A stretch of DNA of 64,000 bases from Flavobacteriales bacterium (GTDB taxonomy: Bacteria > Bacteroidota > Bacteroidia > Flavobacteriales_D > Crocinitomicaceae). The position numbers and the translations under genes are program-made. Where the stretch lies: NCBI GenBank assembly GCA_947470515.1, contig CANITF010000001.1, positions 62,001 through 126,000 of the forward strand, written 5' to 3'. The notes under the pieces were generated by a model, which saw nothing but the letters and a program-made list of their open reading frames with translations, was not told where the DNA came from and made no database searches. Positions 3,725 to 17,596 of this stretch are shown here, piece after piece. Position 1 is the stretch's first letter. The number at the start of each line of letters is the position of its first letter.

Positions 3725-4975
3725 TCACAAATTATCAATATTCAATTTACGCAATTTTGGTGTCAACCTAGCTGTAACAATTACTACCAAAATAGTTAAA
3801 ATTCCCCCCACAACAATTGACGGTTTTAAACCAAATGCTCTTGCTGTTGTTCCAGATTCAAAGGCTCCAATTTCATTTGAGGAACCAATAAAAATACCAT
3901 TTACAGCTGATACACGTCCACGCATATTATCTGGTGTTGATAATTGAAGTATCGTGTGTCGAATAACAACGCTGACGTTGTCAAAAGCTCCTGTTAAGAA
4001 CAAGAAAAATAACGCCCAATAGAAATTAGTTGACAAACCAAATAAGATAGTCGCTAATCCAAACGCTCCAACGGAAAGAAATAAATTTCGACCAGCATTT
4101 TTAGTAGGTGGTTTATAAGCAATGATCAGTGCCATTATTACAGCACCAATTGCAGGTGCAGCTCTTAGGAAACCTAATTCAATCGATCCAGCGTGTAAAA
4201 CTTTATCTGCAAAAGCGGGTAATAATGCAACAGCTCCTCCAAATAAAACCGCGAAAAGATCTAAAGTCAATGCTCCTAAAATCAATTGATTTTTAAAAAC
4301 AAATTTGATTCCAGCTGAAAGACTCTCAAACAACGATTCTGTTTTGTCCTTTGCAGGAATTGGTTTTGAAGCAATAAATAAAAACGCTAAGAATGCTAAA
4401 ATGATAAAGGAAATATCAACGGTATATGCAACAGTGTAATTTACTGCAATTAAAATTCCTGCTAAAGATGGCCCTAGAACTGAAGCAATGTGCCAAAAGG
4501 TACTGTTCCATGTTGCTGCATTTGCATAAAAAGCCCTAGGCACAATTTGCGACATGAAAGAGGGATAGGCTGCAGATAAAAATCCACGAATTATTCCAAC
4601 AAAAGCAATTGCTATGAAAATAGGAGTTGTCCCAAAGTTTTTAATTACATGAACCGTATCCAATGAAAAATACAAGAGTAAACTTGTAACTAGAATGAAT
4701 AAAAAACTGAAGAAAAGAATAATATATTTTCTATTGAACGAATCAGCAATGTGACCAGAAAACAACGAAATTATAATAAAAGGAATCGCTTCAGTAAGGC
4801 CTATCATTCCTAAAGCCAAAACATCATGGGTAAGATCATAAACTTGCCAGCCGACAATCACACTTTGCATTTGAATACCTAAAGTCAAGAAAAAGCGATT
4901 CGCCAAAAAGAAATTGAATTCTTTAATTCTTAATACAGCAAACGGATCGTGCTTTTCTTTTTTTGATTCAGTCAT
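3725..4975 (-). CDS. MFS transporter (EntS/H+ antiporter-like)
   Basis: A 416-residue major facilitator with about 11-12 hydrophobic helices and an MFS signature near residues 65-85 (GHIADSFNRKYII). A central loop (around 205-220, rich in charged residues) separates the two six-helix halves. The sequence resembles the EntS/MefA type drug:H+ antiporter group, whose members export siderophores or macrolides from the cytoplasm. Being next to an iron-type TonB receptor makes siderophore or metabolite export an attractive but unproven idea. The substrate cannot be deduced. Confidence 0.85.
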   Translation of the reverse strand: MTESKKEKHDPFAVLRIKEFNFFLANRFFLTLGIQMQSVIVGWQVYDLTHDVLALGMIGLTEAIPFIIISLFSGHIADSFNRKYIILFFSFLFILVTSLLLYFSLDTVHVIKNFGTTPIFIAIAFVGIIRGFLSAAYPSFMSQIVPRAFYANAATWNSTFWHIASVLGPSLAGILIAVNYTVAYTVDISFIILAFLAFLFIASKPIPAKDKTESLFESLSAGIKFVFKNQLILGALTLDLFAVLFGGAVALLPAFADKVLHAGSIELGFLRAAPAIGAVIMALIIAYKPPTKNAGRNLFLSVGAFGLATILFGLSTNFYWALFFLFLTGAFDNVSVVIRHTILQLSTPDNMRGRVSAVNGIFIGSSNEIGAFESGTTARAFGLKPSIVVGGILTILVVIVTARLTPKLRKLNIDNL

Positions 4976-5072
4976 GTTTTCAAAAAAGTTAAAGTCTTTA
5001 TGGGTGCAGTAATATATGGTTAATTCCAGTTTAAATTGTCACATTTTTTTTGGAACAAATAGGTGTTGCCCT

Positions 5073-5363
5073 CTACTTATCCAATACCTTTGGAATTCTA
5101 AAATAGTCCGAATCCTTTTTAGGAGCATTTTTCAACCCTTCATCTTGTGTAATCGAATCAACAGCAACGTCTTCACGCAGGTTGTTATATCCTTCAGTCA
5201 TGAAAATTAATGGTTCAACATTGTCTGTGTTCACTTCACTCAATTTATCCATGAATGAAATGATGTTTTCCATGTCTTGAATGATAGCTTGTTTTTTATC
5301 TCCTTCAAATTCAAGTCGCGCTAAATGTGCAATATGGTCAACAATTTCTTCTGTAATTTTCAT
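5073..5363 (-). CDS. gatC: Asp-tRNA(Asn)/Glu-tRNA(Gln) amidotransferase subunit GatC
   Basis: A 96-residue protein with the standard GatC layout: an N-terminal helix pair (EEIVDHIAHLARLEF), an acidic helix (DMENIISFMDKL) and the conserved turn NTDNVEPL. It ends with the extended segment LREDVAVDS...APKKDSDYFRIPKVLD that threads between GatA and GatB. GatCAB converts misacylated Glu-tRNA(Gln) or Asp-tRNA(Asn) to the amide form. gatA and gatB are not in the window, so the subunits are unlinked here, which is common in Bacteroidota. Confidence 0.95.
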   Translation of the reverse strand: MKITEEIVDHIAHLARLEFEGDKKQAIIQDMENIISFMDKLSEVNTDNVEPLIFMTEGYNNLREDVAVDSITQDEGLKNAPKKDSDYFRIPKVLDK

Positions 5364-5415
5364 GGTGTAAAAATAGTAAAATGATTTAATCCTATTTCGT
5401 TACTTTCCCCAAAAA

Positions 5416-5523
5416 AACTCCAGAGGAGTTAAATGTTTGCAACGACGGATGAAATCCGTCGTGGAGAAAAGTCGAAATTCAGTTTTGGCGTGTGTCCGAC
5501 AGCTGGCGGACCATGACAAAACT
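5416..5523. repeat. Three-hairpin intergenic element, copy B
   Basis: This copy has the same order as the element at 3589-3697: AACTCC-aga-GGAGTT (5416-5430), CGACGGAT-gaa-ATCCGTCG (5443-5461) and an outer AGTTTTG...CAAAACT stem (5481-5523). The inner stem is GTCCG...CGGAC instead of GTTTTT...AAAAAC. The sequence is replaced but pairing is preserved. Confidence 0.8.
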
Positions 5524-5570
5524 AATCTAAAGAAATTAACGAAGATTTAATGATTCTAAAAGCTCTTTCC

Positions 5571-6338
5571 TTATTTGTTGTGAATCAACCCAGGATGTTC
5601 CTTAATCAACGATTCATTGATCTTATCAAAACAAACCCCCAATACTTCTAATTCCGTCATTTCAGCAATTGCTTCCGTTTTAATTGCTTCATGAACATAA
5701 ACTTTTGAAATACCTGGTCTTGCAGGCCCTAACAAGTTTGTTGGATCTGAAAATAATTTATAATGATTGGTAAATGTTACAGGAATAATAGGAACATCTA
5801 ATGCTTTTGCCAATTTGAAAGCACCTTTTTTAAAAGGAATCATGGCAGGACTCCCTTCATCTGGAATTCCACCTTCAGGAAAAATAACGAGCGACCAACC
5901 TTCCTTTACAGCTTTTTTGGCTAAGATGAACGATGTTGCAGCTTTACTTCTATCTTTTCTGTAGACAGGAATGTTCAACCCTTTGAAATACGTTCGAATA
6001 ATTGGGTAACTCAAGATCTCTCCTTTTCCGAGAAACAAAAAAGGATGTTTCGGAAGAATTGAATACATGAAAAAGATGTCCAGATAGGAAGAATGGTTTG
6101 CAACAATAATATATGGCCCTTCAGGAATTGGAGAATCAATTACTTTTTTAACGCGGTAGAAACAAAAAACGCGCATCATCCAACTCCAAAACACAAACAA
6201 ACGAAAACTGATTTTTTTCCATTTTTTGTTCGACAACAAGACCCAAAAAAAAGGGTAAAGTGCCACAGCGAAAATCACAAAGATTACCGCAACATAACAT
6301 TTCCAAAGTAGGGAGAAAAGTCCTTTGATTGTGTTCAT
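5571..6338 (-). CDS. plsC: 1-acyl-sn-glycerol-3-phosphate acyltransferase
   Basis: A 255-residue inner-membrane acyltransferase that transfers the second acyl chain in phosphatidic acid synthesis. There is an N-terminal hydrophobic helix (residues 8-35), then the catalytic HX4D motif NHSSYLD (H82, D87). The substrate-binding block FPEGGI follows (E155) and then a PVTF segment. The family usually spans 230-260 residues, so it appears complete. It is divergent from trpS, whose start is about 90 bases away. A lyso-ornithine acyltransferase role is an alternative, since PlsC-fold enzymes share these motifs. Confidence 0.9.
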   Translation of the reverse strand: MNTIKGLFSLLWKCYVAVIFVIFAVALYPFFWVLLSNKKWKKISFRLFVFWSWMMRVFCFYRVKKVIDSPIPEGPYIIVANHSSYLDIFFMYSILPKHPFLFLGKGEILSYPIIRTYFKGLNIPVYRKDRSKAATSFILAKKAVKEGWSLVIFPEGGIPDEGSPAMIPFKKGAFKLAKALDVPIIPVTFTNHYKLFSDPTNLLGPARPGISKVYVHEAIKTEAIAEMTELEVLGVCFDKINESLIKEHPGLIHNK

Positions 6339-14851: not shown

Positions 14852-15316
14852 ATGAAAAAACAAATTTTTCTTTTCGCTACTTTCTTTACAGCTTTGGCGG
14901 CAACAGCTCAAGAAGTAGTTTCATCACAAGGTGAAACGTATTCCAACGCCAATGGAAGTATTGATTTCACGGTCGGTGAAGTGATTATCAACACAGGTTC
15001 GAATGGAACGAATGACCTTACCCAAGGTTTCCACCAAACGAACTGGAACTTTTTAGGAGTGGAAGATTTTGCTCCGGACTACCAAGCAACTATTTTTCCT
15101 AATCCAACAGAAGATGTATTGAACATTAGAACAAGCACGTTCGAGAATGTGACCTACACGCTGTATGATACGCAAGGGAAGCTTGTAATGCAGAACATTC
15201 TTTCTGCTGAGCAAACACCCATTCAAGTAAGTCAATTGGCTCCAGGAGCTTATTCGCTATGCATCAATGACCAAACTGGGCAATTGAAGAATTTCAAATT
15301 AATAAAATCACACTAA
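14852..15316 (+). CDS. Small T9SS-sorted secreted protein
   Basis: 154 residues. The signal peptide (MKKQIFLFATFFTALAATAQ) is followed by a short beta-rich segment of the kind often found in Bacteroidota secreted proteins (SSQGETYSNANGSIDFTVGE, then a conserved LTQGFHQ). A type A T9SS C-terminal domain follows from IFPNPTEDVLNI (about residue 86) to the end. It is exported to the periplasm and then across the outer membrane. It precedes the collagen-repeat DGR target by 10 bases, so the two are probably co-transcribed and may act together at the cell surface. No enzymatic domain is present. Confidence 0.8.
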   Translation: MKKQIFLFATFFTALAATAQEVVSSQGETYSNANGSIDFTVGEVIINTGSNGTNDLTQGFHQTNWNFLGVEDFAPDYQATIFPNPTEDVLNIRTSTFENVTYTLYDTQGKLVMQNILSAEQTPIQVSQLAPGAYSLCINDQTGQLKNFKLIKSH

Positions 15317-15326
15317 TTGATATTTT

Positions 15327-17114
15327 ATGAAAAAATTACTATTATCATTGGTTGCGGCAGCAACACTTTCATTAAGCTCTTTCGGGCAAGCACCAGAGGG
15401 CTTTAAATACCAGGCAGTAGTAAGAGATGCTGGAAACACCATATTAAACAACCAAGCAGTTGGTCTGCGCATGACGATCCAACAAGGTTCTATTGGGGGA
15501 ACCACCGTTTATGCTGAAACATTTTCAACAACCACCAACGCTTACGGATTGGTAAACCTAGAAATTGGAAACGGAACTGTTGTAAGTGGAGATTTTACAA
15601 CGATTGATTGGGCAAATGGTCCTTTCTTCATGGAAACAGCAGCAGATGTAACTGGAGGAACCAACTATACTGTTATGGGTACGAGCCAATTGATGAGCGT
15701 TCCTTATGCATTGTATGCAAAGACATCGGGAAGTTCAACTCCTGGTCCTCAAGGACCTCAAGGAATTCAAGGAACAGCAGGAAATGATGGAGCAACTGGA
15801 CCACAAGGCCCCGCAGGTTCAAATGGAACAAATGGAATAAATGGACAAAGTGCTTATGAAATTGCTGTTACCAATGGATATATCGGAACAGAAGCACAAT
15901 GGTTAACCTCATTGCAAGGTGCTACAGGAGCTCAAGGGCCAGCAGGTCCTACAGGTTTAACTGGTGTAACAGGAGCAACAGGAGCAACAGGAGCTCAAGG
16001 TCCAATAGGTTTAACTGGTGCAACAGGAGCAACAGGAGCTCAAGGTGCAACAGGTTTAACAGGAGCAACAGGTTTAACAGGAGCAACAGGTCCTCAAGGT
16101 CCAATAGGTTTAACTGGTGCAACAGGAGCTCAAGGGTCAGCAGGTCCTACAGGTTTAACTGGTGCAATGGGAGCAACAGGAACTCAAGGTATTCAAGGTT
16201 TAACTGGCGCTACAGGCCCACAAGGTCCAATAGGTTTAACTGGTGCAACAGGAGCAACTGGTTCAGTTGGAGCAACAGGAGCAACAGGCGCAACAGGTCC
16301 ACAAGGTCCAATTGGTTTAACAGGAGCAACTGGTTCGGTTGGTGCTACAGGCGCAACTGGCCCACAAGGTCCAATAGGTTTAACTGGTGCAACAGGAGCT
16401 CAAGGGCCAGCAGGTCCTACAGGTTTAACTGGTGTAACAGGAGCAACAGGAGCAACAGGAGCTCAAGGTCCAATAGGTTTAACTGGTGCAACAGGAGCAA
16501 CAGGTTTAACAGGAGCAACAGGTCCTCAAGGTCCAATAGGTTTAACTGGTGCAACGGGAGCTCAAGGGCCAACAGGTTTAACAGGTGCAACGGGAGCAAC
16601 AGGCCCAACAGGTCCTCAAGGCCCGGCGGGTAACGATGGACAAGGTGGTGTCACAACAGCTGGTACGAATGTTACAATAACTGGTTCAGGAACAGTTAGC
16701 GATCCATATGTGGTAAATGCAAATGGAGGTACTCCTACCTACACAATCGGCCTGTGGCCAGAATTAGGCGGTTACGTATTCTGGGTTTCTGCAGATGGTA
16801 AACACGGCCTTGTGGCTGAAACGCAAAATCAAGGATATACATCATGGTATGAAGCTCAAAACTTGATTTCAAACCCATCTAATCATTCAGTTAATGGACA
16901 AAAATTCAGAGATTGGCGAATGCCAACAAGATTCGAATTAAATGAAATGTATGTTCAGCGAGTAGCAATTGGCGGTTTTGCTAATTTCGGCTATTGGAGT
17001 TCTACGGAGAACAATTATGGTAATGCGTGGGGGCAGTATTTCTCCGATGGTTTCCAGGGCTACGACGGTAAGGCCGGCTACCCCTTCTATGTTCGTTCGG
17101 TCCGGGCTTTTTAA
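15327..17114 (+). CDS. Collagen-repeat surface protein with DGR-type variable C-terminus
   Basis: 595 residues. The signal peptide is [22 protein letters not shown] beta domain spans about 22-135 ([16 protein letters not shown]...[13 protein letters not shown]), common in phylum proteins. Collagen-like Gly-X-Y tracts lie at about 140-173 and 199-438, dominated by GATGATG and [10 protein letters not shown] units. They are split by a conserved linker ([19 protein letters not shown]). The C-terminal DUF1566/Lcl-type C-type-lectin-like domain (about 470-595) has WRMPT at 530-534 and YWSSTE at 556-561 and ends YVRSVRAF. The last 34 codons behave as a DGR variable region. The protein would form a trimeric stalk presenting a variable ligand-binding tip. 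A T9SS domain is not seen. Confidence 0.88.
15918..16625 (+). repeat. Collagen-coding tandem repeat DNA
   Basis: The segment is built of 9-18 base units encoding GAT, GLT, GPQ and GPI triplets. Near-identical longer blocks recur, for example the stretch from GAQGPAG at about 15936 and again near 16399. This points to expansion by slippage or recombination and makes the tract length-variable and hard to assemble. Confidence 0.85.
16992..17111 (+). other. Candidate DGR variable region (VR)
   Basis: From TAT TGG (Y556, W557) to the final TTT (F595). Between residues 562 and 588 every codon ends in C or T except GCG, TGG, GGG, CAG, CAG and AAG. The C/T-ending codons encode N, N, Y, G, N, Y, F, S, D, G, F, G, Y, D, G, A, G, Y, P, F and Y. 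This is what adenine mutagenesis of AAC/AAT template codons yields (NNC/NNT). The invariant end VRSVRAF (GTTCGTTCGGTCCGGGC) would correspond to the homing-initiation end. The stretch is much more GC-rich than its surroundings. The template repeat was not found in the window. Confidence 0.72.
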
Positions 17115-17171
17115 CTATTTAACTCCCGATAGCTATCGGGATTAACTATTTAAATATAACCGCGAAGCGGT
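17111..17171 (+). repeat. Palindrome, flanking direct repeats and hairpin after the VR
   Basis: Directly after the target's stop is a perfect 18-bp palindrome TCCCGATAGCTATCGGGA (17124-17141). It is flanked by two 12-base direct repeats TTAACTATTTAA (17111-17122 and 17142-17153). A second hairpin ACCGC-gaa-GCGGT lies at 17159-17171. Hairpins just downstream of the VR are known to assist target recognition in characterised DGRs; a terminator role is the alternative. Confidence 0.6.
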
Positions 17172-17192
17172 CGATTTTATTTTCGCAACCCA

Positions 17193-17399
17193 ATGGCACT
17201 TTATTATGATTTACCAGTTTACAGGGATACTTATAAATTGATTTTAAAAATATTTGAGTGTACCAAAGATTTTTCAAAGGAGTATAAATACACCTTGGGG
17301 CAAGATATGAAGCGTGATGCCTTACAACTGGTAAGAAGTATTTATAGAGCAAATAAAAATGTTCGTTTGCTGAGCAATATGCTAAATGGAAAGCGCTAG
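17193..17399 (+). pseudogene. avd: Truncated DGR accessory protein Avd (four-helix bundle) remnant
   Basis: The frame opens MALYYDLPVYRDTYKLIL, continues FECTKDFSKEYKYTLGQDMK, and then LQLVRSIYRANK. This is a clear match to the N-terminal half of Bacteroidota DGR Avd/four-helix bundle proteins. It then jumps to NVRLLSNMLNGKR and stops at 68 residues, against about 110-125 for intact members. VRLLSNM looks like part of the third helix, so an internal deletion plus loss of the end is likely. Intact Avd pentamers bind the DGR reverse transcriptase and template RNA; this product would lack helices 3-4. It lies 78 bases after the target gene. Confidence 0.75.
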
Positions 17400-17451
17400 T
17401 TTTAATAGTGGTATTTGATTCTCTAGGCTAAGATAAAACACTACTTCAAAT

Positions 17452-17483
17452 TTTGGAATTATTGGGAAGAGAAACTATATTTG
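17452..17483 (+). promoter_or_regulatory. Promoter of the cyclase-kinase-regulator operon
   Basis: TTTG (17452-17455), a 20-base spacer and TATATTTG (17476-17483) match the Bacteroidota consensus perfectly. The predicted 5' leader is about 105 bases. It makes the signalling operon independent of the DGR cassette. Confidence 0.7.
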
Positions 17484-17596
17484 AATTAAATAAACTACTA
17501 ATTTATTGCTATTATGATGGATCAATTGAAAAAGTGTTTGTTAACCAAAAATGATAGAAGCACAAATTTAAATTACTTTTCAATTGTAACGAGAAC

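What the first reader, a model, noticed from the sequence alone, without database searches (positions are those of the whole stretch)
15327..17114. Orphan DGR target: collagen stalk fused to a hypervariable C-type-lectin-like tip
The sequence shows a signal peptide, about 270 residues of collagen-like triplets and a DUF1566/Lcl domain. In its last part (residues 562-588) nearly all non-scaffold codons end in C or T. The fixed codons are the ones lacking AA at positions 1-2 or acting as anchors (A, W, Q, K). Established DGR biology predicts exactly this from adenine mutagenesis of AAC/AAT template codons. A collagen trimer carrying three diversified tips would be a high-avidity display device. 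Neither reverse transcriptase nor template repeat is in the window, so the system is either fed in trans or dead.
Basis: partly seen in the sequence, partly recalled or inferred. Interest (0 to 1): 0.85.

Follow-up and report, generated by a model that had tools for sequence, protein, structure and literature searches.

The report
Frozen target of a lost retroelement
This gene makes a collagen-stalked surface fibre whose sticky tip was once rewritten by a bacterial mutation machine (a diversity-generating retroelement); the machine has since been cut away, leaving one fixed version of the tip and a stump of a helper gene beside it.

Summary
Gene 15327-17114 encodes a signal peptide, a collagen stalk and an Lcl_C/DUF1566 tip, and the tip carries a DGR variable repeat (about 16971-17102). 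Relatives prove it. A template-like repeat in same-genus genome G018 differs from the window at 14 of 89 positions, all 14 at template adenines. The template of a complete DGR in same-family genome G046 differs at 32 of 129, 29 at adenines. Five Lcl_C genes from other relatives show no such bias.

Template and reverse transcriptase, which follow avd in G046, are missing here, were not found elsewhere in this nearly complete genome, and no clear DGR reverse transcriptase turned up in 26 genus genomes. Best reading: a recently dead DGR whose last-written tip survives as a fixed adhesin.

In G046 a collagen-plus-Lcl target has a complete cassette. Four lysines needed for ligand binding in Legionella Lcl align with mutable codons, though chance alone gives 0.09. 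Leftover targets are known from Treponema denticola; I found no paper on a collagen-stalked DGR target. Structure prediction failed, then closed.

The parts
14852..15316 (+). Partner gene, 154 aa, with a T9SS type A sorting domain, directly upstream of the target
   Evidence: Por_Secre_tail E 4.7e-13, TIGR04183 E 2.9e-12; homologs found in 14 of 23 other loci searched, two of them the same contig
15327..17114 (+). DGR target gene: signal peptide and N-terminal domain (to about 15743), collagen stalk (about 15744-16661 with one short break), Lcl_C tip (16797-17105)
   Evidence: NF046116 adhesin_Lcl E 4.3e-83 but 279 bits against a cut-off of 500
16971..17102 (+). Variable repeat (VR); changed codons lie in residues 554-587
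   Evidence: 14 of 14 mismatches at template adenines against G018; 29 of 32 against G046; codon list
17084..17114 (+). Conserved 3' end of the VR and stop, in the position of an IMH (name and role recalled from other DGRs)
   Evidence: Conserved in VR ends of relatives (query win_imh_hairpin; sequences)
17125..17140 (.). 16-nt palindrome, also after both G018 contig-1 targets, absent after the G046 target
   Evidence: folding of 17105-17190 as DNA z -2.94, 2 of 200 shuffles fold as well
17159..17171 (.). Small hairpin ACCGC-GAA-GCGGT between target and avd, a DGR-like target-side hairpin
   Evidence: Same or one-base loop variant in 7 of 8 flanks scanned, window included; the eighth (G208) fails the strict pattern
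17193..17399 (+). Truncated avd: 55 codons of avd (17193-17357), then 13 codons without a match and a stop
   Evidence: bAvd E 5.1e-8 over model 7-52 of 107, 33.8 bits against a cut-off of 40; NF033474 DivGenRetAVD E 9.3e-7, 29.1 bits against 80; 98% identical to G046 Avd over 55 aa; DNA homology ends at 17357
17432..17554 (+). Fragment that reads as the C-terminal tail of another protein, next to the avd break
   Evidence: DNA match of 17434-17539 to G011 and G002 at 70-71%, translation; calling it a T9SS-like tail is my reading

Best explanation
The gene is a former target of a diversity-generating retroelement that sat here as target, avd, template, RT. The RT copied the template RNA with errors at adenines and the cDNA replaced the 3' end of the target, rewriting about 20 codons on the tip of a collagen-stalked adhesin. 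A deletion or rearrangement that cut avd after 55 codons removed template and RT. Since then the tip has been fixed in the variant written last; the gene is intact and probably still makes a fixed adhesin. Shown here: adenine-specific differences to relatives' templates, the avd remnant in cis, absence of template and RT from the assembly. Inferred: the ancestral order at this very locus, trimer, surface position, ligand binding, present expression.
For: Window VR against the G018 template-like repeat: 14 of 14 mismatches at adenines, p 3.5e-8. Against the G046 template: 29 of 32, p 6.2e-12; the three others are sites where the G018 template agrees with the window. Templates of G208, G133 and G030 also show the bias (32 of 41, 31 of 40, 28 of 46, end columns included). 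Controls: 10 TR-TR and 5 VR-VR pairs p>0.4, 5 Lcl_C genes L058-L062 p 6.9e-3 to 0.47. avd remnant broken at 17357. No TR or RT in the own genome. Complete cassette with a collagen plus Lcl_C target in G046. Recent loss: 13 synonymous and 0 non-synonymous differences to G018 in the 55 avd codons.
Against: The templates compared come from other species, not from this one. The window VR has one codon more than the G046 template. The end of the VR and the hairpin are still intact, as a target fed in trans would need. G018's own two contig-1 targets fit G018's template less well (12 of 16 and 14 of 20 mismatches at adenines), so that template has changed or was not their source. The genome is a draft of 58 contigs.
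Confidence: 0.87

Rival explanations
1. The target is still diversified in trans by a template and RT on a plasmid, phage or unassembled piece of this genome.
For: VR end and hairpin are intact; the assembly is a draft; remote targets exist in other DGRs (PMC7517822, passages).
Against: No template or RT in a 99.94% complete assembly. No contig of the viral collection matches an exact pattern of this repeat. The closest RTs in the plasmid and phage collections are under 60% identical, best rows 38% and 46%.
Confidence: 0.07
2. The target was copied here alone, with only the start of avd, from a DGR-bearing genome, so there never was a working cassette at this locus.
For: The orthologous locus in G009 has a target with another stalk and an adenine-biased VR; G022 has another tip, so pieces of this gene do move.
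Against: avd follows the target in the same order and spacing as in G018 and G046. This differs from the best reading only in where the cassette worked.
Confidence: 0.1
3. Assembly error: the cassette is present but was lost or misjoined at 17357.
For: 58 contigs; DGR regions vary and may assemble badly (general knowledge).
Against: DNA from 17564 on is collinear with G009, where a target and an adenylate cyclase are likewise neighbours. No RT anywhere in the assembly, and none clear in any of the 26 genus genomes.
Confidence: 0.04
4. Ordinary Lcl_C adhesin with a chance codon pattern, never a DGR target.
For: Lcl_C proteins without the signature exist in relatives (L058-L062).
Against: Adenine specificity with clean controls; avd remnant in cis.
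Confidence: 0.01

Closest known systems
Leftover DGR target genes in Treponema denticola isolates without RT and TR (PMC4891356, section 11)
   Same: VRs that differ from templates of other isolates mostly at adenines; core lost, target kept
   Different: Other bacteria and target proteins; here an avd stump remains in cis and the target has a collagen stalk
Complete DGR of G046 contig 16 (same family, L114)
   Same: Collagen plus Lcl_C target, avd 98% identical to the remnant over 55 aa, template explaining 29 of 32 VR differences
   Different: Has full avd, template and RT; lacks the 16-nt palindrome
Legionella collagen-like adhesin Lcl (8q4e; PMC11162425)
   Same: Collagen stalk plus DUF1566 tip; tip sequence match E 9.8e-22
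   Different: No DGR is mentioned in that paper: the word 'diversity' does not occur in its main text; N-terminus is a short helix there, a larger domain here
DGR targets with DUF1566 domains (PMC6642488, PMC4159848; passages)
   Same: DUF1566/Lcl_C domain diversified at its C-terminal end
   Different: No collagen stalk mentioned: 'collagen' occurs 0 times in PMC4159848; not searched in PMC6642488
Mosaic adhesive trimer fibres of Bdellovibrio (PMC10769870, passages)
   Same: Common N-terminal part with exchangeable stalks and tips; swaps seen at this locus in G009 and G022
   Different: Bdello_MAT_N match is weak, 29.7 bits against a cut-off of 60; 'collagen' occurs 0 times in that paper's main text

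Membership tests
Diversity-generating retroelement, complete | DGR-type reverse transcriptase | tested here: not met
   No RVT_1 and no DGR-RT profile match in the own genome
Diversity-generating retroelement, complete | Template repeat in the genome | tested here: not met
   Own genome: only the VR itself matches well, next best E 0.24
Diversity-generating retroelement, complete | Accessory protein Avd | tested here: not met
   Only about half remains, 55 of some 115 codons
DGR target gene (variable protein) | VR near the 3' end that differs from a template at adenines | tested here: met
   14 of 14 and 29 of 32 against templates of relatives; own template absent
DGR target gene (variable protein) | Hairpin after the VR | tested here: met
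   Hairpin 17159-17171, same or one-base variant in 7 of 8 flanks scanned
DGR target gene (variable protein) | Variation among cells or strains of one species | not testable with these tools
   No second isolate or reads of the species were available
Lcl-type collagen-like adhesin | Collagen repeats plus DUF1566/Lcl_C C-terminal domain | tested here: met
   NF046116 E 4.3e-83 but 279 bits, below its cut-off of 500
Lcl-type collagen-like adhesin | Trimer that binds glycans | not testable with these tools
   Known for Legionella Lcl; structure prediction failed
Mosaic adhesive trimer | MAT N-terminal domain | tested here: inconclusive
   Bdello_MAT_N E 5e-7, 29.7 bits against a cut-off of 60

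The most novel reading that the evidence does not exclude
In this genus DGRs act as a 'write, then discard' device: cassettes write the tip of a collagen- or fibre-stalked adhesin and are lost repeatedly, while the chosen tip is kept as a fixed, domesticated adhesin. Adenine-biased VRs without a clear DGR RT in G000, G009, G014, G018, G025 (only 69% complete) and more weakly G005, with cassettes broken at different points, fit this; repeated independent loss was not shown by a tree.
Probability: 0.25. Interest if true: 0.68.

Novelty: new variant of a known kind. Interest (0 to 1): 0.52.

Why it matters
A relative's template lets one read which codons the lost machine wrote, on a scaffold whose solved homolog (Legionella Lcl) has a mapped ligand face. 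Complete cassettes in the same family (G046) make a collagen-stalked, DGR-diversified display testable. Related genomes offer several stages of cassette loss: full avd with a truncated template (G018), about half of avd (window), about a quarter (L057), and no avd match (G009).

Tried and rejected
Chance codon composition: rejected. Other RTs of the genus as drivers in trans: RVT_1 matches 16 of 26 genus genomes. The ORFs printed read to me as retron, polyprotein or other RTs by motif; for a few loci (such as L074, L095) the RT piece itself was not printed. The DGR-RT profile finds nothing in the genus except weak matches inside ORFs of 992 and 1449 aa in G007 and G011. An RT tail as the source of the 13 codons after the avd break: the blastn shows no convincing match, so their origin stays open. 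Carriage of this DGR lineage by phages or plasmids: nothing close. The paper search on DGR decay listed nothing that I used.

Adenine bias was tested on 21 rows: 16 candidate VRs (window included) and 5 Lcl_C genes from other relatives, treated as controls after they showed no VR-like similarity. 11 of 16 candidates have p<1e-3, of which 7 have at most 9 non-adenine mismatches (window, L056, L057, two of G018 contig 1, one of G018 contig 25, one of G025). The 5 without clear bias are G018:C25 b, G005:C14 b, G025:C2 a and c, and G020:C135. The p-values treat sites as independent and alignments were made to the template. L057's whole genome was not searched for an RT.

Exposure of the variable residues therefore rests on homology.

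Full report
What is there. The ORF at 15327-17114 is intact, 595 aa, with Collagen (6 stretches) and Lcl_C domains.

Just 3' of the stop lie a 16-nt palindrome (17125-17140) and a small hairpin (17159-17171); the hairpin or a one-base loop variant is present in 7 of 8 flanks scanned, the window included. The stretch folds better than its shuffles (z -2.94). Then comes a 68-aa ORF that matches bAvd over model positions 7-52 of 107 and NCBIfam's DGR Avd (E 9.3e-7), both below the curated cut-offs, as a half-length protein would be. It is 98% identical to the G046 Avd over 55 residues. DNA homology to G018 and G046 stops at 17357. Beyond lie 13 codons without a match and a fragment that reads as the tail of another protein.

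Adenine test. In G018, a same-genus genome, the order is target, hairpin, full avd, then a template-like repeat cut at its 3' end; an unrelated ORF follows, and no DGR RT was found in that genome. Over 89 nt the window VR differs from that repeat at 14 positions, all at template adenines (31 of 89 positions are A; p 3.5e-8). In G046, same family, the cassette is complete: target, avd, template, RT with GNLTSQ and YVDD. Its template differs from the window VR at 32 of 129 aligned positions, 29 at adenines (p 6.2e-12); at the three others the G018 template agrees with the window. The window has one codon more. Templates of G208, G133 and G030 show the bias too. Controls: 10 TR-TR pairs and 5 VR-VR pairs have p above 0.4; five Lcl_C genes of other relatives (L058-L062) have p between 6.9e-3 and 0.47. 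Against simple accounts: G018's own two contig-1 targets fit G018's template less well (12 of 16 and 14 of 20 at adenines).

Is it dead? The own genome (2.99 Mb, 58 contigs, 99.94% complete) has no other copy of the VR, no template (next best E 0.24), no RVT_1 and no DGR RT by a profile of six family RTs. That profile matches 32 of 240 family genomes at E up to 0.001, strongly (E<1e-50) in 9: G030, G046, G051, G133, G185, G208, G218, G223, G239. In the 26 genus genomes it gives only weak matches inside long ORFs of G007 and G011. The loss looks recent: the 55 remaining avd codons differ from G018 by 13 synonymous and 0 non-synonymous changes (from G046 by 13 and 1), and none of the 58 non-adenine sites of the 89-nt comparison has changed.

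Other orphans. Of 16 candidate VRs tested against the G046 template, 11 show adenine bias at p<1e-3 and 5 do not. L057, a named Flavobacteriales genome whose relation to the genus I did not test, keeps an avd stump of 30 residues at 60% identity. In G009 the orthologous locus (partner upstream, adenylate cyclase downstream) holds a target with another stalk, a biased VR (25 of 36, p 2e-5) and a hairpin, and that genome has no bAvd match. In G022 N-terminal part and collagen are shared but the tip is of another kind. The locus thus swaps modules, as MAT fibres do (PMC10769870, passages); the N-terminal match to MAT is below cut-off.

How it probably worked. In G046 a collagen plus Lcl_C target has a complete cassette. 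Of four targets next to complete cassettes scanned, G046 contig 16 has clear collagen, G208 one stretch just under the cut-off, G046 contig 84 and G030 none. The tip matches PDB 8q4e (listed as HbP1; E 9.8e-22), an entry named in the Legionella Lcl paper (one occurrence). Lcl is a trimer with a collagen stalk and a C-type-lectin-like tip (PMC11162425, sections 10-11 and passages). K369, K380, K385 and K391, whose mutation lowers ligand binding there, lie on its upper surface and align with window residues 562, 573, 579 and 585, all AAx codons in the composite template. But 21 of 37 codons are AAx, so chance gives 0.09, and D386, whose mutation had no effect, aligns with an AAx codon as well. 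Diversification of the ligand face is suggested, not proven.

Compared with what is known. DUF1566 is a well-known DGR target domain (PMC6642488, PMC4159848, passages). Leftover targets without RT or TR are described in T. denticola (PMC4891356, section 11). Searches for DGR plus collagen returned 6 and 2 papers; in the two opened, PMC7517822 and PMC7159879, collagen stands only in reference lists; the rest I saw only in listings. DUF1566 plus collagen returned 8, of which I opened only the Lcl paper. So I found no description of a collagen-stalked DGR target in this library, which lacks most subscription journals. Hence 'new variant of a known kind'.

Noticed in passing
window 14852-15316: A T9SS-sorted 154-aa partner gene sits directly upstream of the target; homologs occur in 14 of 23 other loci searched (two of them the same contig), often next to the target.
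   Followed up: partly
L158 (G009) 3879-5591 and L159 (G022) 2-2923: Same locus, other modules: G009 has a different stalk with a biased VR tip, G022 shares the collagen but has another tip.
   Followed up: partly
L063:9287-9395 (G018): A template-like repeat cut at its 3' end with no RT beside it; it fits the window VR better than G018's own contig-1 targets.
   Followed up: partly
window 17432-17554: A fragment that reads as the tail of another protein lies just after the avd break, matching G011 and G002 at about 70%.
   Followed up: partly
G191:C10:32585-32701, G053:C28:1432-1533: Short matches to the DGR-RT profile (open frames of 39 and 43 aa) that may be relics of lost RTs elsewhere in the family.
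   Followed up: no
window 15899-16633: A 244-aa ORF in another frame inside the collagen repeats, most likely a by-product of the repeats.
   Followed up: no
G000:C17:30272-30589: A second, weak bAvd-like ORF of 121 aa (E 1.2e-4) in the own genome, with a similar one in G018; probably a four-helix-bundle paralog.
   Followed up: no
L056 (G014:C136): The orphan target there is interrupted by a stop codon, so some frozen targets decay.
   Followed up: no
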